A stretch of DNA of 64,000 nucleotides, from positions 1 through 64,000 of IMG/VR virus record IMGVR_UViG_3300042892_005063; one strand, 5' to 3'. The position numbers were made by a program, and so were the translations under genes. Position 1 is the first letter of the stretch. The number at the start of each line of letters is the position of its first letter. This document shows, piece after piece, positions 1,403 to 37,652 of this stretch. Under the pieces are notes generated by a model, which was not told the origin of the DNA, ran no database searches, and worked only from the letters and a program-made list of their open reading frames with translations. This DNA comes from a virus.

Positions 1403-1558
1403 TCATAGTGACGGCAGAGGGTGCGCGTAACAATAGGCGTCGGCCATCCGGCCAGCCAAAAGGGCGTGCACGTAGCTTCCTGGCGTCAGACCCCACAGAA
1501 CATAGCAGATGAACGAATCCCAACAGGTCGCGTCGATCTCGAAACTCTGATCAGGCAT
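1403..1558 (-). CDS. Small hypothetical protein, 51 aa
   Basis: Begins MPDQSFEIDATCWDSF, rich in aromatic and Cys residues. Its ATG overlaps the last codons of the TyrRS gene by 8 nt, and its stop abuts the GTG of the HNH gene, so it is an internal member of the operon TyrRS - this gene - HNH. No domain recognised. Confidence 0.6.
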   Translation of the reverse strand: MPDQSFEIDATCWDSFICYVLWGLTPGSYVHALLAGRMADAYCYAHPLPSL

Positions 1559-2819
1559 CCCATTCGACCACGACAAAGGATTTCTTCCCCACGGCCAAAA
1601 CTGCGGTTCGACCGTCTTCGCGCTTGAACGAGCCACCCATCAGGACACGGACATCATCGACCGCGTCGCCGTTGATGCGCACACCCCGGTTGGCCGCCAT
1701 GCGGTCGGCGTCCTTGCGGGATTTTACCAGCCCGGTCTCGACCAGAACGTCGGCCACCGTCTTGGTCGCCATGTCGGCGATCACCACGGAGTGGACCGGG
1801 ATGTTGGTATCATCGACCAGATCACCATTGAGGAACCCCTTGGCGATCTTCTCCATGGCGTGCGCGACTTCGCGACCATGCACGAAGGCAGTCACCTCGG
1901 TGGCCAGCACCGTTTTGGCGACATTGATGCCGCCGTCCATCAGATCGTCGATCATGTGGAGTTCCAGCAGGGTGAAGAGCTTGAGGAACTCCTCGACCTT
2001 CTCGTCCTCGACGTTGCGCCAGAACTGCCAGAAATCGAACGGCGCGGTCATGTCGGGGTCGAGCCAGATCGCGCCTCCCGCCGTCTTGCCCATTTTCTCG
2101 CCCGCCGTATTGGTCATCAGCGGCGTGGTGAGCCCGTAGGCCGCACGCCCGGTCTTGCGACGGATGAGATCGACGCCATTGACGATGTTGCCCCACTGAT
2201 CGGAGCCGCCGATCTGAAGGATGCATTCCGGGCCGGGCATCGCGGACGAGAATTTCTGCGTGGCCTCGTTGAGGAACAGGAAATCCCCTGCCTGCATGAC
2301 CATGTAGTTGAATTCGAGGAAGGTCATCGGCTCCTGGCGGGCCAGACGGGTCTTCACCGAATCCAACGCCAGCATCTTGTTGATGGTGAAGTGGCGGCCG
2401 AGGTCAGACAGGACGTCGAGGAAGCTCTTGTGCCGCCAGAAATCTTCGTTGTTGACCGCGTAGACATGGCCGATCAAGCGGTCGAACACCTTCTGGATGC
2501 CGACCCGGTTGATCTCGATCTCTTCGGGGGTCAAGGTCGGGCGCAGGGCGGACTTGCCCGTTGGGTCACCGATGCGGGTCGTCGCGCCACCGAAGACCAC
2601 GATGGGGTTGTGGCCCTGCTCCTTGACGTGGTGGAGGGCCATGATCTGAATGAGGGAGCCGACGTGCAGGCTGGGAGCCGTCAGGTCAAAGCCAATGTAG
2701 ACCGAGGCCGGGCCATCGGGATGGCGGCGCACGAGGCGGTCGTCGAGGGCCCACTCGTCCGTGACTTGCTTGATGAAGCCGCGTTCGCGGAGCGTGATCA
2801 TGAGGGCTGACGTGAGCAT
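1551..2819 (-). CDS. tyrS: Tyrosyl-tRNA synthetase, apparently complete
   Basis: 422 aa from ATG 2819; an inner ATG at 2801 would give 416 aa, close to bacterial TyrRS. Class I signatures are intact. The HIGH motif is HVGS in LTAPSLHVGSLIQ. The tyrosine-binding region includes GGSDQWGN. KMSKS appears as KMGKT. The C-terminal S4-like RNA-binding domain ends the protein (SRKDADRMAANRGVRING). It charges tRNA-Tyr with tyrosine. No tRNA-Tyr gene is seen in the window, so it may supplement or replace the host enzyme. A TTGACG/TATCGT promoter lies 6 nt before ATG 2819, favouring that start and a leaderless mRNA. Confidence 0.95.
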   Translation of the reverse strand: MLTSALMITLRERGFIKQVTDEWALDDRLVRRHPDGPASVYIGFDLTAPSLHVGSLIQIMALHHVKEQGHNPIVVFGGATTRIGDPTGKSALRPTLTPEEIEINRVGIQKVFDRLIGHVYAVNNEDFWRHKSFLDVLSDLGRHFTINKMLALDSVKTRLARQEPMTFLEFNYMVMQAGDFLFLNEATQKFSSAMPGPECILQIGGSDQWGNIVNGVDLIRRKTGRAAYGLTTPLMTNTAGEKMGKTAGGAIWLDPDMTAPFDFWQFWRNVEDEKVEEFLKLFTLLELHMIDDLMDGGINVAKTVLATEVTAFVHGREVAHAMEKIAKGFLNGDLVDDTNIPVHSVVIADMATKTVADVLVETGLVKSRKDADRMAANRGVRINGDAVDDVRVLMGGSFKREDGRTAVLAVGKKSFVVVEWDA

Positions 2820-2825
2820 CCCGTC

Positions 2826-2853
2826 ACGATAGGGCAAAGGACTTTTTCGTCAA
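2826..2853 (-). promoter_or_regulatory. Early promoter of tyrS, leaderless
   Basis: On the minus strand, TTGACG (2853-2848), 16-nt spacer, TATCGT (2831-2826), then 6 nt to the ATG at 2819. Confidence 0.6.
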
Positions 2854-2861
2854 CCAAATAA

Positions 2862-3656
2862 TCAGAACGGGTAAGGGGCGTCGGGGTCAGGCGGTATATA
2901 GGCGGGCTTGGGTGGTGCGACCCAGGTCTTGCGGCCCGACACGTAGTCGGTCTCTTCGGGACCGTCGCCCCAGTCGTCCATCTCGGCTCGCATCAGCCGG
3001 TCATGAATTTGGTAGGGCGTTTCGCCAGCCCAGAAGGGGTCTGCGAAAACGAGCGTGCCGTCCTCGCGCTTCATGATGTTGGCGACGTGAAGATCGAGCG
3101 ATGCTTCAATCGGCGCCCCATTAAGATGGTCCCAGAAAAACTGGCAGAGGTCGCCTAGCTCGGGTTCCTCTTCCCAGATGGACTTGTATTCAGCGAGGGC
3201 TCTCTCTGAACCAACGTTGTCATAATACTTCAGATAGGCGGCTTCCTTGTCAGGGAAACCGATGATGTTCACCATGTCACGGCTGGCTTCGAGGTGGCGT
3301 CCCACTGGAAACTTCAAGCCACGCGCCGGGGTCCACGGCAGGAGGCGTTCCATCTTGACCACGCTGACGTAGTTGTTGTCGCGATGGCGGCGCCAGAAAG
3401 GAATTTTCTCCTTCACGGGGGCAAGGAAGCGAGGGAGGTGAGGGCTCGGGTTAGCGGTCGCCCACTTGACGAAGTCCGTGTAGGGGCCGTCCCAGGAGAA
3501 GAACTTGTAGACGTAGTTCCAGCGAGGATGGCCGATCACGGTCGCGTATTTGCCCGCGCCCATGAACTCCCCGCCAGCGGCATAGAAATCCTTGAGCCAG
3601 TCAAAGAGGTCTCTCTCAGCGTAGCGGCGGGTTCCGGTGAGTTCGTCTAGGCGCAT
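2862..3656 (-). CDS. Protein kinase/aminoglycoside phosphotransferase-fold protein
   Basis: 264 aa. The N-terminal segment GAGKYATVIGHP followed by VYKFF resembles a glycine-rich loop and an ATP-binding lysine. The later segment SLDLHVANIMKR followed by LVFADPF resembles the catalytic loop (D...N) and the metal-binding D of APH-like kinases. The C-terminus is proline-rich (IPPDPDAPYPF). Target unknown. A TAAATA late box ends 4 nt before the ATG, so it is probably a late, leaderless gene. Kinase fold is inferred from motif order only. Confidence 0.6.
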   Translation of the reverse strand: MRLDELTGTRRYAERDLFDWLKDFYAAGGEFMGAGKYATVIGHPRWNYVYKFFSWDGPYTDFVKWATANPSPHLPRFLAPVKEKIPFWRRHRDNNYVSVVKMERLLPWTPARGLKFPVGRHLEASRDMVNIIGFPDKEAAYLKYYDNVGSERALAEYKSIWEEEPELGDLCQFFWDHLNGAPIEASLDLHVANIMKREDGTLVFADPFWAGETPYQIHDRLMRAEMDDWGDGPEETDYVSGRKTWVAPPKPAYIPPDPDAPYPF

Positions 3657-3660
3657 GCCT

Positions 3661-3683
3661 TATTTAGAGTAGAAGAATAAATA
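3661..3683. promoter_or_regulatory. Divergent T4-like late promoters
   Basis: TAAATA on the minus strand (3666-3661), 4 nt before the kinase-like start at 3656, and TAAATA on the plus strand (3678-3683), upstream of the membrane protein at 3713. T4 late promoters use TATAAATA read by gp55/gp33; the matching sigma factor is not in this window. Confidence 0.6.
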
Positions 3684-3712
3684 ACAACACAATACCAGCC
3701 GGGAAACTGCAA

Positions 3713-4366
3713 ATGAAATCAATGAGAAATCTGATGGAGTGTGTTGAATACTCGACCTTCACCCCAGAAGACGAGAGAGTGTTTCTCAAAGAAGCCGCTG
3801 ACCCGGACTTTGCTAAAAAATTCACCAACTCTTCAATAAGGGTTATGCAGGGTCTCCTGAGCTACTGGCGGAAAAATGACCCCCAGGCTGATGCCAAGAT
3901 AGATGCCAAGGCGGAAGCGGCGATTCAAGACGCAACGACCAAAATGCGAAAGCTGAAAATGCCCGAGGACAAGATCACGGCGGCTATTGAGCAGTTCAAT
4001 GCTATCCGGGCAAAGCCTGCTGCGGTAAACGAAAGCTTTGAAGCGGTTGCCGGGGTACTGATCATAGGCGTTTGTTTTGTTGTGAGTTCCTTCGTACTAT
4101 CGATATTGACCACCATAGTGTCAGAACCTTTCTACATGGTAGATGATCTTTTGACGATTTGTGGAGTTGACTTCCCGATTTTCCGTTGGGTTGGGCAGGC
4201 GTCACGTTTCATCTTCAACAAGCCCCTAGAATTTTTGCAAATGTTGATCCAGTTCCCTTACGGTGGGTTCAACGTCAAGTCGTGGAATGAATGGGACACG
4301 GGTTCTGCGCTTTTGGGACGCAACGACAAAGTAATTAGCGGAACCGTTGATCGGTATCACGGATAA
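3713..4366 (+). CDS. Membrane protein of unknown function
   Basis: 217 aa (ATG at 3713; an inner ATG at 3725 is possible). Residues about 30-105 are charged and helical. One strong hydrophobic segment (VAGVLIIGVCFVVSSFVLSI, about 112-131) is followed by an amphipathic region with further hydrophobic stretches (FIFNKPLEFLQMLIQF). Base composition is less GC-rich than its neighbours. A late TAAATA box lies 30 nt upstream. No family recognised. Confidence 0.6.
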   Translation: MKSMRNLMECVEYSTFTPEDERVFLKEAADPDFAKKFTNSSIRVMQGLLSYWRKNDPQADAKIDAKAEAAIQDATTKMRKLKMPEDKITAAIEQFNAIRAKPAAVNESFEAVAGVLIIGVCFVVSSFVLSILTTIVSEPFYMVDDLLTICGVDFPIFRWVGQASRFIFNKPLEFLQMLIQFPYGGFNVKSWNEWDTGSALLGRNDKVISGTVDRYHG

Positions 4367-4374
4367 CCACCATG

Positions 4375-4653
4375 CTAGAGCGCGAGTTCGTTCACACGGC
4401 GAACGAGATCATCGTGCTGAGCTTGCAGGGTTTCGTCCTGCCAGCCCTTGTAGCAACCGCTTGTCCACGTCGAGTGGACTCGGATGGGGCGCAGGCCTTG
4501 AGCCATCAGGACGGCGGCTCCGTAAAGGAGCGCAGAGTCCGGCCCGTTGAAGCGGTCGCCGGGGGCGTCGAACTCGGGGTCGTAGTCGCCCGCCGTTTTG
4601 GCATGGCGTTCCAGGAAATCCATGACCTCCTCGGAGAGAGCGGACATGTCCAT
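4375..4653 (-). CDS. Hypothetical protein, 92 aa
   Basis: Begins MDMSALSEEVMDFLERH. The ATG overlaps the terminase C-half stop by one base, so it is the last gene of that operon. No domain recognised. Confidence 0.65.
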   Translation of the reverse strand: MDMSALSEEVMDFLERHAKTAGDYDPEFDAPGDRFNGPDSALLYGAAVLMAQGLRPIRVHSTWTSGCYKGWQDETLQAQHDDLVRRVNELAL

Positions 4654-5765
4654 CAGAATAGCACCGGCATGGGTTCACCCTCGTAGATTTCTTCGTCACC
4701 GATGTATTCTTTGAGGTCACCGGTATCGTTGCTCCACCCCAGGACGACCTCTAGCATGCGGACGACAAGAAGAGTAGCAGAAACTAGATCGTCGTGTTCA
4801 CCCGGTTTGGCGCCGAAGCTGTTCTCGGTGCTGACGAAGTTCTTCAACTCAGTCAGGAGTTGCAATGAGTTGATGATGGCACGGTCTGATTCCACGAGCG
4901 ACTTCAAGCGGGCGCACGCTGACATCTTTTTGGAATTGTTGGTGTTGAAACCCTTGCGGAAGCGACGCACCTGACCCTTTTTCTTTTTCTCAGAAATGAA
5001 CATGCCGGGGAAGCGTTCTTCACCAGTGTCTTCGATGACCTGGAGGACGGCCTCGCCGAGCCCATTGTTCTCGACAGTCCAGAAGATTTCCGGTTCGCCG
5101 TGCTGATCTGGGTTGTCCCGCAGGGTCCCGTCGAGGAAGATCAGAATCTGCATCAGGACGCGGACTTGGTTACGGGTCGTGGATTCGTTGTGCTGCCACT
5201 CGCCGACTTGAATCATCTCCGGGAGTTGGAAAATCTGGATGGCGGCGTAGTCGCGACCAACACCGTGACTGGGGTCAAGAGCCACCACGTAGGTCTTGTT
5301 CGGCTCCAGGCTCTCAACATACCAGCGGGCCCGGCCGGTGTAGAAAGTCGGGTTGACGACGTGGTGGGTCATCGCCGCGAGTTTCATAGGCGCGATCAGG
5401 GTTTCGTCGTCGGTAACGAAGTTGCAGTTATGCGATACCAAACCGTTAGTTGTATAGAGGTGTCCACCATCGACTTCGACGAGGTCGAACACTGGCTGGA
5501 GCTTGCCGGTCTCTTTCTTCTTCGTGATAGCGACTGCGGTGCCATCTCCGCAGAGAACAGCATCTCCCTTGGACAGGTCTGCAATAGTTTTGACCCCGGT
5601 TGAGGTCAGGAGTTTGTGGTTTAGTGTGCACTCAAGTTTCTTGCCATTGGCGAACTCAAGAGCCCAAATAGGGAAATCACCCATGTGAGCAACGCCCGAG
5701 AAACCCATCAGGCCGTTCGGGGTCATTACTTTTAGTCCGAGTGAGTTATGCGCGTAGTCTCTCAT
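4653..5765 (-). CDS. terL: Terminase large subunit, C-terminal half preceded by C-intein (split intein)
   Basis: 370 aa from ATG 5765 (GTG 5798 is an alternative). Residues 1-113 are the C-part of an intein: block B (CTLNHKLLT), block F (VFDLVEV) and the C-terminal SHN followed by Cys+1. From CNFVTDD onward (257 aa) it is the terminase nuclease domain, with ALDPSHGVGRDYAA (RNase H-fold metal aspartate) and HDDLVSATLL. The partner N-half ends at 6517. Trans-splicing of the two proteins would restore about 529 aa of TerL, the packaging motor that translocates DNA into the prohead. A TAAATA box ends 5 nt before ATG 5765. Confidence 0.9.
   Translation of the reverse strand: MRDYAHNSLGLKVMTPNGLMGFSGVAHMGDFPIWALEFANGKKLECTLNHKLLTSTGVKTIADLSKGDAVLCGDGTAVAITKKKETGKLQPVFDLVEVDGGHLYTTNGLVSHNCNFVTDDETLIAPMKLAAMTHHVVNPTFYTGRARWYVESLEPNKTYVVALDPSHGVGRDYAAIQIFQLPEMIQVGEWQHNESTTRNQVRVLMQILIFLDGTLRDNPDQHGEPEIFWTVENNGLGEAVLQVIEDTGEERFPGMFISEKKKKGQVRRFRKGFNTNNSKKMSACARLKSLVESDRAIINSLQLLTELKNFVSTENSFGAKPGEHDDLVSATLLVVRMLEVVLGWSNDTGDLKEYIGDEEIYEGEPMPVLF
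5427..5765 (-). other. C-terminal fragment of split intein (IntC, about 113 aa)
   Basis: Contains blocks B, F and G of a Hint fold but no block A; block A is on the separate N-half gene. The last residue is Asn (5427-5429), preceded by His and followed by Cys as the first C-extein residue. No endonuclease domain fits in this length. The split lies between blocks A and B. This matches the 'atypically split' TerL inteins known from metagenomes (AceL-TerL type, established knowledge). Confidence 0.88.
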
Positions 5766-5770
5766 GCGAA

Positions 5771-5795
5771 TATTTAGGCTTTCGAATCCTAAATA
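5771..5795. promoter_or_regulatory. Divergent TAAATA boxes between IntC gene and next gene
   Basis: Minus-strand TAAATA at 5776-5771, 5 nt before ATG 5765; plus-strand TAAATA at 5790-5795, 8 nt before ATG 5804. The intergenic space has no clear ribosome-binding site on either strand. Confidence 0.5.
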
Positions 5796-5803
5796 CACCT
5801 AGC

Positions 5804-6088
5804 ATGCGTGATCACATCCATCTCATCGAAGGCCTGTTTGGCATCACGGACCCCTCAATCCTGGTTGTGGAAGAGGTTGAGACCTCCAACCGCATCGAGA
5901 TCACCGAAGGCGTAGACGACTTCACCGCGCGCTGGGATGATCTGCCGTCCAAAAAAGACCTCGGATACCTGTTCGAGAGCATCAAGGAACGCCCCGACGT
6001 CGAGGCCTACTATCTGAACCGGATGGTCTTCCTGACCAAGCGTCAGGCCCTCGTGGCAATCAACAGCCTAGCCCGCGACGCAGTCTAG
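5804..6088 (+). CDS. Hypothetical protein in the terL gap, 94 aa
   Basis: Begins MRDHIHLIEGLFGITD. It lies between the two terminase halves on the opposite strand and ends 4 nt into the convergent gene at 6085. No nuclease motif is visible, so I cannot call it the remnant of a homing gene. Upstream TAAATA box at 5790. Confidence 0.6.
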   Translation: MRDHIHLIEGLFGITDPSILVVEEVETSNRIEITEGVDDFTARWDDLPSKKDLGYLFESIKERPDVEAYYLNRMVFLTKRQALVAINSLARDAV

Positions 6089-6501
6089 ATTTCGCCCTCG
6101 ACGTCTATGATCGTCGGGCTCAGCGGGACCATGTAGGGGAGCGTGATTTCCTCCTCGCTTTCGGAGTTGAAATACATCTCGCCAATCGAATCTCGGAACG
6201 CATATTTCTGCGTGTCATAGATACGACCGTCGCGGCGTTCGATCTGTAGGGCGCGGCGATGAACCTCGATAGTGCCAACCTGATACCACTGGTCCGGGTG
6301 ATCACATACCTCCGTCAGCGGTTTGCAATGCCATAGGCGCAGGAGGACATCATCGGTGAACTTGTTGGTCATGATAGCGTAGAGGCCCTTGAAGGCGTCC
6401 TCAACACCAACAAGGTCTTCCCGGTCGTTCATGCCGATCAACCGCACCTCGGCGATCTTTCTGTCGATGTATTGCTGCTCTGGCGCCCGCTTCCTGGTCA
6501 T
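6085..6501 (-). CDS. Hypothetical protein in the terL gap, 138 aa
   Basis: Begins MTRKRAPEQQYIDRK. Same strand as both terminase halves and located directly after the N-half stop (16 nt). The protein is charged with no transmembrane segment. In other phages with fractured terL genes this position can hold a homing endonuclease, but no catalytic motif is recognisable here. Confidence 0.65.
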   Translation of the reverse strand: MTRKRAPEQQYIDRKIAEVRLIGMNDREDLVGVEDAFKGLYAIMTNKFTDDVLLRLWHCKPLTEVCDHPDQWYQVGTIEVHRRALQIERRDGRIYDTQKYAFRDSIGEMYFNSESEEEITLPYMVPLSPTIIDVEGEI

Positions 6502-6516
6502 TCGACCATTATAGCA

Positions 6517-8460
6517 TCAGGTTGCGCCGCTGGCCAGCTTCAATACACGATAGAGATCGCCGATCTTCATCGAATAGTCGCGAGCACTATCGTTGAGGTC
6601 GAGACGGGTGTCGTTTGCAACGCACTCGAACTCCTGCTGGAAACGAGCTTCACCAAGCTGAGCCCGGTACGGCGCCGCCCAATCTTCGTCACGGTCGGGG
6701 TGAGCACTCCATGGAATCGTGACTGCGAAGAAATTGTTGGTTCCCAGCCCGCCAGGGCGGAAGTTGCCGTATTCGTCCTTGTTGTCGATGGCGGCCTTGT
6801 AGATTTGCGCGAACTGATCGACGTCGGATTTGGGAGTCGAGGTGATGATGCAGTCACCACCGGTCGAGAGAACGGGGGCAATGGAGGTCCAGAACTCCTT
6901 GGCCTGATTCGGCGGCACGAACGCGAATTCGTCCAGATACAGGAGCGAGATCGACAGACCACGACCGGCGTCCGACGTGGTCGCGCGCGAGATGATGCGC
7001 GAGCCATTGTCGAAGCCGACGTTACCCTTGTTGTATTCGGTGACGCCTGCGCGGATGTGGTTCGGGAGGTTCTCGTAGCAGTAGCGGATTCGCTCCATGA
7101 TCTCCAGGGCCTGCGAGAGCTTGTTCGCGGTCAGGAGGATGGTGGTGTCCGGCGTGAACATCGCCCGCCAGAGCAGATACCCGGCCGCACACGTGGTGTT
7201 GTGGGTCGGGACCAGTGTTTCACCGGCCAGGAAGAGGTGATCGGTGTTCTCGACCTGAAGGCAACGCATCGGGACGCTATCGACTGGCGTGATCGACTTG
7301 ATGTAGATGCGCTTGTTCTTAGGATGATTTTTCAGAGCGGAGAGACGTTCTGCTTTCCTCGGCAGAGTGCAGACCTTGAGGTCTGTCGCGAACGTGAGGA
7401 CGAAGCAGTCTTTCTTCGGCGTCGTCTTGACCCGAAGCGTGCTCTTGATGCCAAGCGTCGAAAGCAGGAAACGAACCTGCTTGATAAGTTTCTCATCGGA
7501 CTGGTAGAAACGACAGACACCGTTCTTCTCTACGGTTCCGTCAGTATCCATCAGGCCCTGAAGGAGAGTCAGCCTCTTTTCAAAGCTCGTGTAGAGCATC
7601 TCGTGGGGTATGAGTTTTCGCCGTTCAGGATTAGACTTCGTTTTTTTAAGGCCAGCCCGTCGCATCTCGTCCGAAAATCGGCGACCCAAACCGAAGCAGC
7701 CGGTATTCTCCGTCCGTTTGTCGAGACGCCAGTCGTGGGCATCGTATCCCAACGACCTTGCTGCCGAGACGTAGTGTTGATAATCATCTCGGTGGCAGGT
7801 TATCTCCGAGCCCGACACACTACCGTCTCCGAGCCAGACGCCGAACAGATACGGGTCAACCGGTGAAGGCGCATCTTCAAATTCCAGAGCTTCGCAGTGG
7901 TTGATGCTGATGCTCTGGCCACCCACCATGCCACGGTAATAGTTTTGCAGTTCGATCATACGGTCGGTCGTGACCGTTTCGGTGCGCTGGTTTTTGTAGC
8001 CTGGGATGTTGATAGTCCACAGATGTTCAGCATCCGCGACAATGGTTTCGCCATGGGTGAACTCAATCTTGTAGCTGTTGCAATCGGTCATCGTTTCGGT
8101 GATGAATGAAACCGTGGCGGGCTTCCCATCCTTACCGAAAATAGTGTCTCCGACCTTGAGATCGCCCATTTTCGAGAACCCGGTGGGGGTCAGAATTGGC
8201 GTTTCGTTCCACAACCGCTTGCCCATTTGCCTCGCCGTGAGCGCAACAGTGAAGCGGTTCTCGTGGAAGGCCCGAATCATGTCCACCTGGAAGGGGTAGG
8301 GGATGAACGGGATTGCACCCTGGAGGGGGTGCTGAATTTTCATGAACGTGCGCATGAAATACATCGGGTCTTCGACGCACTGCACGAGTTCGGTTAGCAT
8401 TTCAGTCGTATAGTCGGTCTTCGTATACGGCTTCTTGAGGATATCGGGGTCTTCAGCCAT
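6517..8460 (-). CDS. terL: Terminase large subunit, N-terminal half with class-3-like intein and N-intein
   Basis: 647 aa from ATG 8460 (TTG 8502 also possible). Extein 1 (1-81) ends in the Walker A start ARQMGK. A 340-aa intein follows. Extein 2 (191 aa) begins TTCAAGYLLW, completing Walker A, and carries Walker B (LLYLDEFAF) and the coupling motif ITSTPKS. The last 35 aa start at Cys (6624-6622) and form an N-intein (block A CVANDTRL...), ending at a stop. The ATPase is therefore interrupted in its catalytic loop, and the nuclease domain is on another gene (4653-5765). One cis- and one trans-splicing event are needed for an intact T4 gp17-like motor. Confidence 0.92.
   Translation of the reverse strand: MAEDPDILKKPYTKTDYTTEMLTELVQCVEDPMYFMRTFMKIQHPLQGAIPFIPYPFQVDMIRAFHENRFTVALTARQMGKRLWNETPILTPTGFSKMGDLKVGDTIFGKDGKPATVSFITETMTDCNSYKIEFTHGETIVADAEHLWTINIPGYKNQRTETVTTDRMIELQNYYRGMVGGQSISINHCEALEFEDAPSPVDPYLFGVWLGDGSVSGSEITCHRDDYQHYVSAARSLGYDAHDWRLDKRTENTGCFGLGRRFSDEMRRAGLKKTKSNPERRKLIPHEMLYTSFEKRLTLLQGLMDTDGTVEKNGVCRFYQSDEKLIKQVRFLLSTLGIKSTLRVKTTPKKDCFVLTFATDLKVCTLPRKAERLSALKNHPKNKRIYIKSITPVDSVPMRCLQVENTDHLFLAGETLVPTHNTTCAAGYLLWRAMFTPDTTILLTANKLSQALEIMERIRYCYENLPNHIRAGVTEYNKGNVGFDNGSRIISRATTSDAGRGLSISLLYLDEFAFVPPNQAKEFWTSIAPVLSTGGDCIITSTPKSDVDQFAQIYKAAIDNKDEYGNFRPGGLGTNNFFAVTIPWSAHPDRDEDWAAPYRAQLGEARFQQEFECVANDTRLDLNDSARDYSMKIGDLYRVLKLASGAT
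6520..6624 (-). other. N-terminal fragment of split intein (IntN, 35 aa)
   Basis: Starts with Cys1 directly after extein FE and contains only the block A region; the protein then stops. 35 aa is short compared with canonical IntN pieces of about 100 aa, and similar to the very short N-inteins of atypically split TerL inteins. Confidence 0.85.
7198..8217 (-). other. Class-3-like intein with LAGLIDADG endonuclease in TerL Walker A
   Basis: 340 aa, flanked by GK (N-extein) and Thr+1 (C-extein); it ends THN. Position 1 is Arg (CGG) instead of Cys/Ser/Ala. Instead it shows the Trp-Cys-Thr triplet defining class 3 inteins: Trp at block B position 12 (AEHLW), Cys at block F position 4 (RCLQV) and Thr at block G position 5 (PTHN). 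The middle holds a LAGLIDADG endonuclease with two motifs (FGVWLGDGS and LLQGLMDTDG). Class 3 splicing starts from the block F Cys (known from DnaB inteins), so lack of Cys1 does not mean inactivity. Confidence 0.88.
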
Positions 8461-8507
8461 GGCGTAGGAGGGCGAACATGGACCCGTGGGCCCCACCCTC
8501 AATAAAG

Positions 8508-8536
8508 TTGCCAGTTATTTAGTATCGTGGTATCCG
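8508..8536 (+). promoter_or_regulatory. Early promoter, leaderless
   Basis: TTGCCA (8508-8513), 17-nt spacer, TATCCG (8531-8536), then 7 nt to ATG 8544. Confidence 0.5.
8516..8521 (-). promoter_or_regulatory. Late TAAATA box upstream of terL N-half
   Basis: TAAATA on the minus strand, about 55 nt before ATG 8460. It overlaps the spacer of the divergent early promoter for 8544. Confidence 0.5.
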
Positions 8537-16986: not shown

Positions 16987-17081
16987 AGAGGATGGCTGGC
17001 TGAGAGGCTTAAGGCGTCCGATTCGAAATCGGGAGGGGGCAGAGATGTCCTCCATGGGTTCAAATCCCATGCCATCCTCTG
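16987..17081 (+). tRNA. tRNA-Ser (anticodon CGA)
   Basis: Class II tRNA with a long variable arm; anticodon loop TTCGAAA. The acceptor stem AGAGGAT/ATCCTCT continues without a mismatch for another 10 bp outside the tRNA, giving a 17-bp stem (16977-16993 with 17074-17090). Discriminator G; CCA not encoded. Confidence 0.85.
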
Positions 17082-17103
17082 AACCGTCTCTGTCAAGATT
17101 TAT

Positions 17104-17179
17104 GGTGGCTGTAGCTCAGTGGTAGAGCGTCTGACTGTGACTCAGAAGGCCGGGGGTTCGATACCCCTCAGCCACCCCA
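17104..17179 (+). tRNA. tRNA-His (GTG), canonical
   Basis: GGTGGCT/AGCCACC acceptor, anticodon loop CTGTGAC, discriminator C and encoded CCA. The leading G can supply the G-1 identity element. Flanked by AGATTT/AAATCT (17096-17101 with 17179-17184), separated from the acceptor by a mismatched pair. Confidence 0.9.
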
Positions 17180-17203
17180 AATCTTCTAGAGAGTATTGAT
17201 GCT

Positions 17204-17293
17204 GGGCCGGTGGTAGAGTCAGGCTTATTGCGACGGTCTTGAAAACCGTAGAGGGTAAAACCTCCGGGGGTTCGAATCCCTCCCGGCCCGCCA
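17204..17293 (+). tRNA. tRNA-Ser (TGA)
   Basis: Class II tRNA; acceptor GGGCCGG/CCGGCCC, anticodon loop CTTGAAA, discriminator G, CCA encoded. Flanked by a perfect 10-bp inverted repeat (17192-17201 with 17292-17301). Confidence 0.85.
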
Positions 17294-17323
17294 TCAATAC
17301 TTTCAGATCGGAGACTAGCCTGC

Positions 17324-17410
17324 GGAGCGCGGGCAGGATGGTAATGCAGCGGTTTGCTAAACCGTAGGGGGCCGGAAGGTCCCCACAGGGTTCGACTCCC
17401 TGGCGTTCCG
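17324..17410 (+). tRNA. tRNA-Ser (GCT)
   Basis: Acceptor GGAGCGC/GCGTTCC (one G-T), anticodon loop TTGCTAA, discriminator G, no CCA. The stem continues outside the tRNA as GC, one T-T mismatch, then 8 bp (17313-17320 with 17413-17420). Confidence 0.82.
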
Positions 17411-17438
17411 CTGGCTAGTCTGTGGTCTACTGGTTGAC

Positions 17439-17444
17439 TAAATA
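17439..17444 (+). promoter_or_regulatory. TAAATA box for leaderless HNH gene
   Basis: TTGACTAAATACTGG directly precedes ATG 17449. Nearly the same string precedes the HNH gene at 37657. Confidence 0.5.
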
Positions 17445-17448
17445 CTGG

Positions 17449-17937
17449 ATGAAAACCAGTATTCGTAAACCAAACTGTGAGTGTTCTACATGCGGCAAGT
17501 CGCACTATGCACGACCCGCAAAACTAGAGAGTCAGGACGGGCGAAGCTATTGTAGCAGAGCCTGCTTTGGAAAGTGGTCTAGGAAGTCAACTGTTCTTTG
17601 TGGAGTCTGCGGAAGAGACATCACGGGGAGCAATAACGCAAAAACCTGTTCGAGAGCTTGCTCAAACAAATCTCGAACGGGCGTCAAATACGGAGAAGGT
17701 AGAAAAAGTTGTAAAGTTTCAAAGGGAAATGCTGTTCGTCTTGCCTTGATTGCAGTCAAAGGTGAACCGAAGTGCGAGAGGTGCGGGTATGACAAATACC
17801 CCGACGTGGTTCAGGTCCACCACGTCATAGAGAGATGCCAAGGGGGTTCAGATGAGCCCGAGAACCTTGAGTTCCTCTGCCCCACCTGTCACAGCGAAGA
17901 GCACCACCTTAGAAGGACGGTTGGCCGAGTGGTTTAA
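17449..17937 (+). CDS. HNH homing-type endonuclease inside the tRNA cluster
   Basis: 162 aa. Two N-terminal zinc fingers (CSTCGKSHYARPAK...YCSRAC and CGVCGRDI...CSRAC), then an HNH domain (CERCGYDK, VHHVIERCQGG, ENLEFLCPTCH). The last 23 nt, including the stop, overlap the 5' end of tRNA-Ser(GGA), so gene and tRNA share sequence. This is typical of a mobile gene settled at a tRNA. Start chosen 4 nt after a TAAATA box; an upstream ATG at 17422 is less likely. Confidence 0.85.
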   Translation: MKTSIRKPNCECSTCGKSHYARPAKLESQDGRSYCSRACFGKWSRKSTVLCGVCGRDITGSNNAKTCSRACSNKSRTGVKYGEGRKSCKVSKGNAVRLALIAVKGEPKCERCGYDKYPDVVQVHHVIERCQGGSDEPENLEFLCPTCHSEEHHLRRTVGRVV

Positions 17938-18006
17938 GGCGCGCGCCTGGAAAGTGCGTGTGGGCAGAAATGTCCACCGAGAGTTCGAATCTCTCACCGT
18001 CCGCCA
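17915..18006 (+). tRNA. tRNA-Ser (GGA)
   Basis: Acceptor GGACGGT/ACCGTCC, anticodon loop CTGGAAA, discriminator G, CCA encoded. No extended flanking stem; its 5' side is coding sequence of the HNH gene. Confidence 0.85.
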
Positions 18007-18017
18007 TTTACTGGTAT

Positions 18018-18093
18018 GCTGGAGTAGCTCAATCGGGAGAGCGCGGGTTTGTGGAGCCCGAGGTAGTGAGTTCGAAACTTACCTTCAGTACCA
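18018..18093 (+). tRNA. Second tRNA-His-like (GTG), non-canonical
   Basis: Acceptor GCTGGAG/CTTCAGT contains two G-T pairs. Anticodon loop TTGTGGA gives GTG. The discriminator is A and the base before position 1 is T, so the usual His identity pair G-1:C73 is missing. CCA is encoded. Flanked by TTACTGGT/ACCAGTAA, which pairs across the CCA end. Confidence 0.7.
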
Positions 18094-18675: not shown

Positions 18676-19294
18676 ATGCTGCGAGGCACACGAATCATCA
18701 CCGGCCAGGAGGCCGCCGCCTACACGAATGCAATCAATACCCTCCGGGGGTTGGTTCATTGAAGCTGGCTACGAGGAAGTAATCCTGCCTGCTCTGTGGG
18801 AGCAGCAAACCTTTATAGACAAGGCCGGACCTGAGATCGTCAATCAGATGTGGGCCTTCCAGGACAAGGGCGGACGAGACGTCTGCCTCATCCCCGAGGT
18901 CACCGGGCTCGTCCAAGAGACGTGGCGAGACGACTGGTCGAAGACCTCCAAGAGCCGTCGCATCTTCTACGTCAGCCGTTGCTACCGCTATGAGCGTCCG
19001 CAGGCTGGCCGCTATCGGGAGTTCACCCAGTTCGGCATCGAACTCCTGGGCGAGGCCGAGAACGGGCGCGAAGAAACCATGGAACTTCTCGACCGCTGTC
19101 TCGGCAGCCTATGCGAGAATTACACCTTGAATGGCAGCGTGAAGCGTGGTCTAAGCTACTACGTCGAAGATGGCTTTGAAGCAGAGTGCAGTGCGCTCGG
19201 TGCTCAGAAGCAGATCGCGGGGGGTGGACGCTACGCCGAAGGCATCGGCTGGGCCATCGGTGTGGATAGGCTGTTGCTCGCCATGGAGAAGTAA
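18676..19294 (+). CDS. Minimal histidyl-tRNA synthetase-like protein, apparent +1 frameshift
   Basis: The frame from ATG 18676 encodes MLRGTRIITGQEAAAY..., like the HisRS N-terminus, but stops at 18760. The continuation (WFIEAGYEEVILPALW = motif 1) is in the +1 frame; the two join if one G of GGGGG at 18746-18750 is removed. Downstream are motif 2 (CYRYERPQAGRYREFTQFG), the His-specific signature in altered form (KRGLSYY) and motif 3 (GIGWAIGVDRLLLA). The insertion domain and anticodon-binding domain of normal HisRS (about 420 aa) are absent, leaving about 205 aa. It could be a programmed frameshift, a broken gene or a sequencing indel. Confidence 0.8.
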
Positions 19295-23716: not shown

Positions 23717-23796
23717 TGTCCATCTCCAGGTAATACTTGGTCATCAACCATATTTACTAGACGGGGTTCTGAAAGTCAATACAGGGCGTTTTTTGG

Positions 23797-23824
23797 TTGA
23801 CGATTTTACCCCACCGCCTATAGT
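23797..23824 (+). promoter_or_regulatory. Early promoter, leaderless
   Basis: TTGACG (23797-23802), 16-nt spacer, TATAGT (23819-23824), 7 nt to ATG 23832. Confidence 0.6.
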
Positions 23825-23831
23825 GCGATGT

Positions 23832-24896
23832 ATGAAACCGCCTGTCCTCCTCGAACGCCGGAAGTTTAGCGAAGCCGTCCAGGTTCGTGATGGGCTCCGC
23901 TGTGTCTTCTGCAAACGCACCGCAGAGGAAACCCCCGAGGGCAAGCTGGACAGTCATCACATCATTGAGCGGCGACTGTTTGCGGCGCCGCACGAGTTCG
24001 GCGGCTACTTCATCGAGAACGGTGCCACGGTGTGCGAGGAGCATCACCTTCAGTGCGAGCAGACCGTGATCTCGGTCGAGGAAGTCCGCGTTGCCTGCGG
24101 CATCACGCGCATCATCGTTCCCTCCCATCTCTACGACGATCAGCAGATCGACAAATGGGGCAATCCCATCCTGGCCAACGGCACCCGCATTCGCGGTGAA
24201 CTCTTCTTCGACGAGTCGGTGCAGAAAGTCCTCAAGCAGGGCGGGGTCCTCGACCTCTTCACCCACCATGTCAAATATCCTCGCACCTACCACATGCCGT
24301 GGAGCCAGAACATTCACGACGATGATCGCATCATTCCGTCGATGTCGGCCTTCGAGGGCCAGCGCGTCATCCTTACGCGCAAGATGGATGGCGAGTGCAC
24401 GACCATGTATCAGGACCATTTCCACGCCCGGTCCCTCGACAGTCCCAACCACTCGTCGCGCAACTGGGTGAAGAATTTCTGGGGTCAGATTCAGGGAGAC
24501 ATCCCGGAGTTCTGGCGTGTCTGCGGTGAGAATCTCTACGCCGAACACAGCATCGCCTACGACGATCTGCCCAGCTACTTCATGGGCTTCTCGATGTGGA
24601 ACGAGCGCAACGTCTGCCTGTCCTGGGATGAGACCATGGAGTGGTTCTCCCTGCTGGGCATCACGCCGGTTCAAGTCGTCTTCGACGGCATCTATGACGA
24701 GAAAGCCATCCGGGCGATCTGCGAAGGGATGGACTGGCAAACCGACGAGGGCTTCGTTCTTCGGCTGGCAGACTCGTTCTCCTACGGGGAGTTCCGGCAC
24801 AAGGCCGCCAAGTTCGTCCGCAAGGACCACGTCCAGACGGTCAAGCACTGGATGCACGGTCGCGAGATCATCCCGAACAAACTGGCGGCGCAATGA
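23832..24896 (+). CDS. HNH domain fused to an RNA ligase
   Basis: 354 aa. Residues 20-77 are an HNH/zinc module (CVFCKRT ... DSHHIIERR ... CEEHHLQCEQ). From about 165 the protein is a nucleotidyltransferase-fold ligase: motif I KMDGE with Lys about 184 (adenylation site), motif IIIa-like GENLYAEHS, motif IV EGFVLRL, motif V KFVRKD. It resembles Rnl2/DraRnl-type RNA ligases, which seal nicked or cleaved RNA such as host-cut tRNAs. The HNH part, if active, would add a nuclease to a ligase; it may instead be a binding domain. Confidence 0.85.
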   Translation: MKPPVLLERRKFSEAVQVRDGLRCVFCKRTAEETPEGKLDSHHIIERRLFAAPHEFGGYFIENGATVCEEHHLQCEQTVISVEEVRVACGITRIIVPSHLYDDQQIDKWGNPILANGTRIRGELFFDESVQKVLKQGGVLDLFTHHVKYPRTYHMPWSQNIHDDDRIIPSMSAFEGQRVILTRKMDGECTTMYQDHFHARSLDSPNHSSRNWVKNFWGQIQGDIPEFWRVCGENLYAEHSIAYDDLPSYFMGFSMWNERNVCLSWDETMEWFSLLGITPVQVVFDGIYDEKAIRAICEGMDWQTDEGFVLRLADSFSYGEFRHKAAKFVRKDHVQTVKHWMHGREIIPNKLAAQ

Positions 24897-26959: not shown

Positions 26960-27131
26960 AGGCGATAGCCCCCTGAATGAGAGTTGTGCAAAAGATCATC
27001 ATCGAGATGATCGACAGAATGGCGGTCGAGGCCGCCCAACCGTACTTCTTCTTGCTGACGAAGAATCCGGCGAGGACGGCCTGACCCACCGAGGCAACGA
27101 ACGTGGCGGCGACAACGATTTCTTGCATCAT
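26949..27131 (-). CDS. Small membrane protein, 60 aa
   Basis: Two hydrophobic segments (VVAATFVASVGQAVLAGFFV and ASTAILSIISMMIFCTTLI) joined by KKKYGW. Overlaps the channel gene start and the GluRS stop (ATGATG). A partner or modulator of the channel is a reasonable guess from position. Confidence 0.7.
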   Translation of the reverse strand: MMQEIVVAATFVASVGQAVLAGFFVSKKKYGWAASTAILSIISMMIFCTTLIQGAIAYAA

Positions 27132-28042
27132 GCCATCCTCACCAGACGCCGGGCTACGGCGTCCAGTTGTTTGCGCTCGAACAGCGGGGCGGAGTTCTTC
27201 AGGCGTCCCTCGGTGAGGAACATTTCAATCGCCCGGTCGGTGGTGATCGGGGGATTGTGCTTGTCGAAGTTGGCGTCGCTGGGGTTCCAGTTCATCCGCA
27301 GCATGTAGGCCAGCACGGCTTCGGCCGAGTAGCCGTCCGCCTTGAACGACATGATGTCGGCGACGTGCGCGTTGCTGCGCTTGCTCAGCTTGGCCCGCTT
27401 ACCGTCTTCGCCGATGATTTCGATCAGGCCGACGTGCGCGAACTCGATGCTGCGCGGCGGGGAAAAGACCGCGTTGCCTTCGATGGCGGCCTTGACCGCA
27501 ACCTGCTTGGACGTGTTGGCGATGTGATCGACGCCACGGATGACGAGGTTCACGCCAGCGAACATATCGTCCACGATGGAGGCGAAGTTGTAGGTCGGCC
27601 CACCGCCGTTCGCGGTCGAGCGCATCAGCACCAGCCCATCGATGAACTTGCGGTCGTGATCGTTGATCTTCACGTCCTTGCGGCCCAGATAGTCGCGCCA
27701 CGTGTCCGGCATGTTGTCGGGCAGTTTCAGCGTGATGGCGCCGTCGTCGAGACGGATTGCCTTGTTGGCGTCAACGAGCGCGTCCGCGATGCGGCGATAC
27801 TCGTCCAGCCGGTCGCTTTGGCGGAAGGTGTCGTCCGGGGTCAGGCCGAGCCAGGACAGCGCATCCATGATGGTGCCGACGTGGGCTTCATCGTTTCGGG
27901 CCACGTCGGTGTCGTCGATGCGCAGAATGAACTTGCCACCGGACGCCTTGGCGGCCAGATAGTTGAAATACGCCGTGCGGGCTGTCCCGAAGTGGAACAT
28001 GCCGGTCGGCGAAGGCGCGATGCGGGTGATAAGAGGGGTCAT
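27128..28042 (-). CDS. Glutamyl-tRNA synthetase-like catalytic core, truncated
   Basis: 304 aa. Class I GluRS/GlnRS core: IAPSPTGMFHFGTART (HIGH = HFGT), FILRIDDTD, VIRGVDHIANTSKQ, and KMSKS as AKLSKRSN. The segment after KLSKR (GYSAEAVLAYMLRMNWNPSD) still matches GluRS, but the anticodon-binding domain (about 150 aa) is missing. In size it is like Glu-Q-RS, but it lacks that enzyme's zinc cysteines. May charge tRNA-Glu poorly or modify another tRNA; no tRNA-Glu gene is seen here. TATAGA lies 7 nt before the ATG. Confidence 0.88.
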   Translation of the reverse strand: MTPLITRIAPSPTGMFHFGTARTAYFNYLAAKASGGKFILRIDDTDVARNDEAHVGTIMDALSWLGLTPDDTFRQSDRLDEYRRIADALVDANKAIRLDDGAITLKLPDNMPDTWRDYLGRKDVKINDHDRKFIDGLVLMRSTANGGGPTYNFASIVDDMFAGVNLVIRGVDHIANTSKQVAVKAAIEGNAVFSPPRSIEFAHVGLIEIIGEDGKRAKLSKRSNAHVADIMSFKADGYSAEAVLAYMLRMNWNPSDANFDKHNPPITTDRAIEMFLTEGRLKNSAPLFERKQLDAVARRLVRMA

Positions 28043-28049
28043 GTGTTTT

Positions 28050-28077
28050 TCTATACAGGACTTGTCTGAATAGTAAA
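28050..28077 (-). promoter_or_regulatory. Early promoter of the GluRS-channel operon
   Basis: Minus strand TTTACT (28077-28072), 16-nt spacer, TATAGA (28055-28050), 7 nt to ATG 28042. Confidence 0.5.
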
Positions 28078-28113
28078 GTCGTAATACCATACCGGTGTGG
28101 AAAATATGTGATC

Positions 28114-37646: not shown

Positions 37647-37652
37647 TAAATA
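37647..37652 (+). promoter_or_regulatory. TAAATA box for leaderless HNH gene
   Basis: TTGACTAAATACTAG directly precedes ATG 37657; it differs by one base from the string before the HNH gene at 17449. Confidence 0.5.

What the first reader, a model, noticed from the sequence alone, without database searches (positions are those of the whole stretch)
4653..6624. terL divided by an atypically split intein, genes on one strand with a 720-bp gap
IntN is only 35 aa and holds block A alone; IntC (about 113 aa) holds blocks B, F and G. Cys1 and Asn/Cys+1 are in place. The halves are separated by two unknown genes on opposite strands. A very short N-intein is like AceL-TerL type inteins and could be a fast natural ligation tool.
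Basis: partly seen in the sequence, partly recalled or inferred. Interest (0 to 1): 0.85.

Follow-up and report, generated by a model that had tools for sequence, protein, structure and literature searches.

The report
Phage packaging motor joined by trans-splicing
A large bacterial virus makes its DNA-packaging motor protein as two separate pieces, each ending in part of a self-removing protein segment (a split intein) that should join them; this is a clear new example of a rare but already known kind of split intein.

Summary
Confirmed. The window is 64 kb of a 107-kb virus record from a jumbo myovirus. Its terL is in two genes on the minus strand. The N-half (6517-8502) ends with a 35-aa IntN starting at Cys1. 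The C-half starts at ATG 5765 with a 113-aa IntC ending HN|C. Joining the exteins, after also removing a second, cis-acting class-3-like LAGLIDADG intein in the Walker A loop (7198-8217), gives 529 aa. That aligns end to end with uninterrupted TerL of Sinorhizobium phage Phosso (532 aa, 56%).

IntC's best sequence match among solved structures is CatC, the consensus atypically split TerL intein. Its model has a Hint fold. Fragment sizes (35/113) sit among GOS-TerL (37/115), AceL-TerL (25/104) and Cat (30/104). Split or contiguous inteins occupy the same site in Vibrio and Aeromonas phages and other viral contigs, while the closest TerL found (66%) lacks it. A near-identical second contig repeats the layout.

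Unusual points: two inteins of different mechanism in one TerL, also seen in contig L081, and halves separated by two non-nuclease orphan genes, one antisense. Splicing itself is inferred, not shown. The IntN is too short for strong independent statistics. Verdict: new member of a known kind.

The parts
8218..8460 (-). TerL N-extein, first part (MAEDPD...ARQMGK), up to the Walker A lysine
   Evidence: alignment with Phosso TerL
7198..8217 (-). cis intein of 340 aa in the Walker A loop: class-3-like (Arg1, block B Trp, block F Cys, block G Thr) with LAGLIDADG homing endonuclease
   Evidence: PF14528 4.5e-13, PF05204 1.2e-5; alignment with Klebsiella phage fENko-Kae01
6625..7197 (-). TerL N-extein, second part (rest of the ATPase domain, Walker B LLYLDE)
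   Evidence: PF03237; 65% identity to Phosso
6520..6624 (-). IntN, 35 aa, Cys1, block A
6085..6501 (-). ORF138 between the halves, 15 bp after terL-N; unknown, weak sub-threshold Tad3-like match
   Evidence: PF25185 E=7.6e-4, below its cut-off; coding bias
5804..6088 (+). ORF94, antisense gene between the halves, no relatives outside the same phage
5771..5795 (.). palindrome TATTTAGG-N9-CCTAAATA, two back-to-back TAAATA boxes: candidate divergent late promoter for IntC-terL and ORF94
   Evidence: TAAATA 23 seen vs 4.8 expected in the window
8516..8521 (-). TAAATA box upstream of terL-N (candidate T4-type late promoter)
5427..5765 (-). IntC, 113 aa, blocks B, F and G, ends HN
   Evidence: CatC match 2e-7; TIGR01443; Hint fold
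4656..5426 (-). TerL C-extein: nuclease domain, starts at Cys+1
   Evidence: PF17289; T4 and RB49 gp17 fold matches

Best explanation
The phage makes its large terminase as two polypeptides. Polypeptide 1 is the ATPase domain, interrupted in its Walker A loop by a cis-splicing class-3 LAGLIDADG intein and ending in a 35-aa IntN. Polypeptide 2 is a 113-aa IntC followed by the nuclease domain. IntN docks into the nearly complete IntC Hint fold. Cys1 forms a thioester, the acyl group moves to Cys+1 (a native conserved Cys of TerL), Asn124 cyclises, and the halves join as ...QEFE-CNFVTDDETLI... Together with cis-excision of the first intein this gives a 529-aa terminase. Shown: the reading frames, splice-site residues, homologies, empty sites, the modelled Hint fold of IntC, and recurrence in a second assembly. 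Inferred: association, trans-splicing, and the activity of the class-3 intein.
For: Exact junctions and 529-aa product aligning end to end with Phosso TerL at 56% and with L020 TerL at 66%. Empty-site relatives L011, L015, L020 and L021. Same-site inteins in Vibrio K469, 1.244A and VP-1, Aeromonas PX29 (annotated N-intein and C-intein), L081, L082 and contiguous L083. IntC against CatC 2e-7. Same-site intein HMM 1.7e-18. AlphaFold model with Hint fold hits gp41-1, VidaL and Cat. No other terL in the record. Fragment sizes match GOS-TerL, AceL-TerL and Cat.
Against: IntN is short and divergent and barely beats shuffled sequence on its own. No splicing was observed. The record is probably a fragment, so an intact terL elsewhere is not excluded. 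The 381-aa model is of moderate confidence (mean pLDDT 76, 12 sequences), and the IntN-IntC complex was not modelled.
Confidence: 0.9

Rival explanations
1. Decayed split intein: the halves no longer splice and the terminase works as a non-covalent two-subunit enzyme (ATPase plus nuclease), with IntN and IntC as remnants.
For: The break lies between the ATPase and nuclease domains, which fold independently; IntN is weakly conserved.
Against: The splice-site and block residues are intact (Cys1, TLNH, GGH, HN, Cys+1). IntC is under coding constraint and scores strongly against its family. The Walker A intein must splice for any ATPase activity, so splicing is presumably in use in this protein.
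Confidence: 0.06
2. The split copy is a pseudogene and an intact terL lies in the unsequenced part of the genome.
For: The record is 107 kb while relatives have 470-517 kb genomes, so much of the genome may be missing.
Against: Both halves keep conserved motifs and coding bias. A second terL would be unusual. Split TerL recurs in relatives.
Confidence: 0.03
3. Assembly artefact: the gap and the antisense gene were introduced by misassembly.
For: The record is of the metagenome-derived kind held in IMG/VR.
Against: A second contig, L002, has the same layout at 99.96% identity over 10.8 kb. The halves end exactly as intein fragments, which an artefact would not produce.
Confidence: 0.01

Closest known systems
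AceL-TerL, GOS-TerL and consensus Cat atypically split inteins (PMC11766414; PDB 6dsl)
   Same: Phage terminase host protein, split shortly after block A, IntN 25-37 aa and IntC 104-115 aa, class 1 residues, Cys+1; Cys1 as in AceL-TerL and Cat; significant sequence match to CatC.
   Different: Sequence divergent (25% identity to CatC in the structural match); halves separated by two non-nuclease genes; a second intein of another class in the same TerL. The host and insertion site of AceL-TerL were not available for comparison here.
Split gp17 inteins of T4-like and Ackermannviridae phages (Aeromonas PX29 17A/17B, Vibrio K469, 1.244.A, VP-1)
   Same: Same insertion site between the ATPase and nuclease domains, same split position, conserved Cys+1.
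   Different: Those carry a GIY-YIG endonuclease fused to IntN or IntC and their genes overlap; here the nuclease is absent and the halves are about 720 bp apart.
Class 3 LAGLIDADG inteins in the TerL Walker A loop (Klebsiella phage fENko-Kae01 and relatives)
   Same: The window's first intein has the same site, W/C/T residues and nuclease type.
   Different: fENko lacks the second, split intein; L081 has both.
Fractured genes with split inteins and homing endonucleases (Dassa 2009, cited in PMC6892783)
   Same: Essential phage gene broken inside an intein with genes in the break.
   Different: No recognisable nuclease in the break here.

Membership tests
Atypically split TerL inteins (AceL/GOS/Cat type) | Host protein is phage TerL | tested here: met
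   Pfam and PHROGs; end-to-end alignment
Atypically split TerL inteins (AceL/GOS/Cat type) | Split after block A with IntN of 25-37 aa and IntC of 104-115 aa | tested here: met
   35/113 aa, compared with the table in PMC11766414
Atypically split TerL inteins (AceL/GOS/Cat type) | Class 1 residues: Cys1 or Ser1, block B TxxH, block G HN, Cys+1 | tested here: met
   Cys1, TLNH61, H123 N124 C125
Atypically split TerL inteins (AceL/GOS/Cat type) | IntC homologous in sequence to characterised members | tested here: met
   CatC 6dsl_B, 2e-7, best PDB match
Atypically split TerL inteins (AceL/GOS/Cat type) | IntN homologous in sequence | tested here: inconclusive
   12 of 2000 shuffles reach its score; 69 of 1000 in the concatenated test; no PDB match
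Atypically split TerL inteins (AceL/GOS/Cat type) | Hint fold | tested here: met
   Model of the C-half; Foldseek to gp41-1 TMt 0.71, VidaL 0.62, Cat 0.75; prediction only
Atypically split TerL inteins (AceL/GOS/Cat type) | Trans-splicing activity | not testable with these tools
   Needs protein expression
Class 3 intein (first intein, 7198-8217) | No Cys at position 1; WCT triplet at N3:12, C2:4 and C1:5 (definition in PMC7891396) | tested here: met
   Arg1; HLW, CLQVE and PTHN aligned with fENko-Kae01
Fractured gene with homing endonuclease in the break | Nuclease gene between the halves | tested here: not met
   No nuclease family in ORF138 or ORF94

The most novel reading that the evidence does not exclude
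Packaging-motor maturation in this lineage depends on two mechanistically different splicing reactions in one protein, a cis class-3 intein in the ATP-binding loop and a trans class-1 split intein between the two domains. The two halves are transcribed from separate late promoters, one of them divergent with an antisense gene, so that terminase assembly is timed by expression and splicing.
Probability: 0.12. Interest if true: 0.6.

Novelty: new member of a known kind. Interest (0 to 1): 0.36.

Why it matters
Only a few atypically split inteins have been characterised, and short synthesisable IntN fragments are wanted for protein labelling. This one is divergent from Cat, so it is a candidate orthogonal pair. 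The comparative set (empty site, contiguous mini-intein L083, adjacent halves L081, nuclease-bearing halves K469 and PX29, halves separated by unrelated genes here) lays out possible stages in the evolution of a split gene at one site. It does not change the general picture.

Tried and rejected
A scan with the same-site IntC alignment was impossible because no stretch was conserved enough. IntN against the PDB gave only chance matches. ORF138 as a nuclease or a Thoeris inhibitor: the Tad3 match is below its cut-off, PADLOC and NCBIfam gave nothing, and the phage matches are weak. ORF138 and ORF94 as widespread cargo genes: neither was found in viral contigs outside the same phage. GTG 5798 as the start of IntC was considered and put second to ATG 5765. 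Intact terL elsewhere in the record: not found. The sequence of AceL-TerL itself could not be retrieved, so its insertion site was not compared.

Full report
What is there. The window is the first 64 kb of a 107,040-bp virus record. By inspection it carries tail sheath and tube genes; it also carries aminoacyl-tRNA synthetase genes and T4-type late-promoter boxes. Its TerL is closest among named phages to those of jumbo phages Sinorhizobium Phosso (469 kb) and Agrobacterium Atu_ph07 (490 kb). On the minus strand, ORF 6517-8502 and ORF 4653-5798 are the two halves of one T4-type large terminase: Terminase_6N in the first, Terminase_6C in the second, with PHROG 36964 covering both. No other terL match is present in the record.

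Junctions. The N-half ends ...ARFQQEFE|CVANDTRLDLNDSARDYSMKIGDLYRVLKLASGAT. The C-half carries IntC ending ...LYTTNGLVSHN|CNFVTDDETLI. Uninterrupted relatives read REFE-CKFVTEDETLI (Phosso). So the intein sits in front of a native Cys that serves as Cys+1, and the predicted ligated sequence QEFE-CNFVTDDETLI restores the family sequence. IntC most likely starts at ATG 5765 (113 aa): the segment from GTG 5798 to that ATG has no coding bias, and the ATG lies close to where the Vibrio phage IntC proteins start.

A second intein. The Walker A loop is interrupted by a 340-aa intein (ARQMGK|RLWNETPILTP...LVPTHN|TTCAAG; 7198-8217) with LAGLIDADG domains. It lacks a nucleophile at position 1 and has block B Trp, block F Cys and block G Thr, the class 3 signature described in PMC7891396. 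Klebsiella phage fENko-Kae01 has a homologue at the same site. Removing both inteins gives 529 aa, aligned end to end with Phosso TerL (532 aa, 56%) and with the joined exteins of L020 TerL (530 aa, 66%).

Is it more than chance? IntC is found by an HMM of six other same-site inteins at E=1.7e-18 among 1213 ORFs of the window, with no other credible hit. Its best sequence match among solved structures is CatC (6dsl_B, 2e-7). An AlphaFold model of the C-half (mean pLDDT 76) contains a Hint domain matching gp41-1, VidaL and Cat, and a nuclease domain matching T4 and RB49 gp17. IntN alone is weakly supported by sequence (12 of 2000 shuffles, 3 of 972 background segments; not significant in the concatenated test). 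Its assignment depends on its exact position, Cys1, and the absence of that part of the Hint domain from IntC.

Comparative evidence. At the same site: Vibrio phages K469, 1.244.A and VP-1 have split inteins with a GIY-YIG nuclease (named by inspection of the sequence) fused after IntN. Aeromonas PX29 has 17A and 17B, annotated as N-intein and as GIY-YIG plus C-intein. Viral contig L081 has a split intein whose halves lie about 50 bp apart, with Ser1/Cys+1, and also a class-3 LAGLIDADG intein in its Walker A loop. L082 has the C-half. L083 has a contiguous 153-aa mini-intein. Without it: L020, L021, Phosso and phage 30-3. The closest relative, L020, instead has a split intein in the Walker A loop. 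The insertion is therefore polymorphic at a shared site, and the double-intein state is found in at least two divergent TerL lineages.

The gap. Between the halves lie ORF138 (-), 15 bp after terL-N, and ORF94 (+), antisense to terL. Both have native coding bias, neither is a detectable nuclease, and neither was found in viral contigs outside this phage; ORF138 has only weak matches in named phages and ORF94 none. TAAATA boxes are enriched in the window (23 against 4.8 expected) and lie upstream of virion genes such as the sheath and tube genes. One lies upstream of terL-N at 8516-8521. Two lie back to back at 5771-5795 between ORF94 and IntC. I infer that IntC-terL may have its own late promoter, although the box lies only 5 nt from ATG 5765, which would make a nearly leaderless message.

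Relation to known systems. The published atypically split TerL inteins have IntN/IntC of 37/115 (GOS-TerL, Ser1/Cys+1), 25/104 (AceL-TerL, Cys1/Cys+1) and 30/104 (Cat) (PMC11766414). The window pair is 35/113 with Cys1/Cys+1. It meets every feature of that family that I could test, except that IntN homology on its own is inconclusive. Splicing activity is untested. I file it as a new member of a known kind. The separation by non-nuclease genes and the second, class-3 intein are variations of the setting, not of the mechanism.

Limits. No splicing was observed. The record is probably a fragment. The AceL-TerL insertion site was not compared.

Noticed in passing
window 7198-8217 (-): Second intein in the same TerL: class-3-like LAGLIDADG cis intein in the Walker A loop with Arg at position 1.
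   Followed up: yes
L081:4794-5303 and 3365-4255: Viral contig with the same double state: class-3 LAGLIDADG intein in the Walker A loop plus a split intein at the ATPase/nuclease boundary with Ser1/Cys+1, a combination that PMC10189870 says is known only from GOS-TerL.
   Followed up: partly
L010:1601-3792 and L020:595-1452: Split inteins in the TerL Walker A loop: Agrobacterium phage Atu_ph07 (Ser1/Thr+1, annotated as two terminase genes) and viral contig L020 (Cys1/Thr+1). The Atu_ph07 pair appears to lack catalytic cysteines at both junctions.
   Followed up: partly
L083:4782-5240: Contiguous 153-aa mini-intein without nuclease at the same TerL site, a natural unsplit counterpart useful as a model.
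   Followed up: partly
window 5771-5795, 3661-3683, 37647-37652: TAAATA late-type boxes, some only 4-8 nt from the start codon (ATG 5765, 5804, 3656, 37657), which would give leaderless late mRNAs; virion genes have boxes 25-35 nt upstream.
   Followed up: partly
window 16990-18093: Cluster of four tRNA-Ser (cga, tga, gct, gga) and two tRNA-His genes with an HNH gene among them, followed at 18728-19294 by a short (188 aa) histidyl-tRNA-synthetase-like ORF.
   Followed up: no
window 1551-2837 (-), 27128-28090 (-): Full-length tyrosyl-tRNA synthetase and a short (320 aa) Glu/Gln-tRNA-synthetase-like protein encoded by the phage.
   Followed up: no
window 23793-24896 (+): RNA ligase (PF09414, residues 191-342) with an N-terminal extension of about 190 aa that looks HNH-like by eye (not detected by Pfam).
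   Followed up: no
window 6085-6501 (-): ORF138 has a sub-threshold match to the Thoeris inhibitor Tad3 (E 7.6e-4, below its cut-off).
   Followed up: partly
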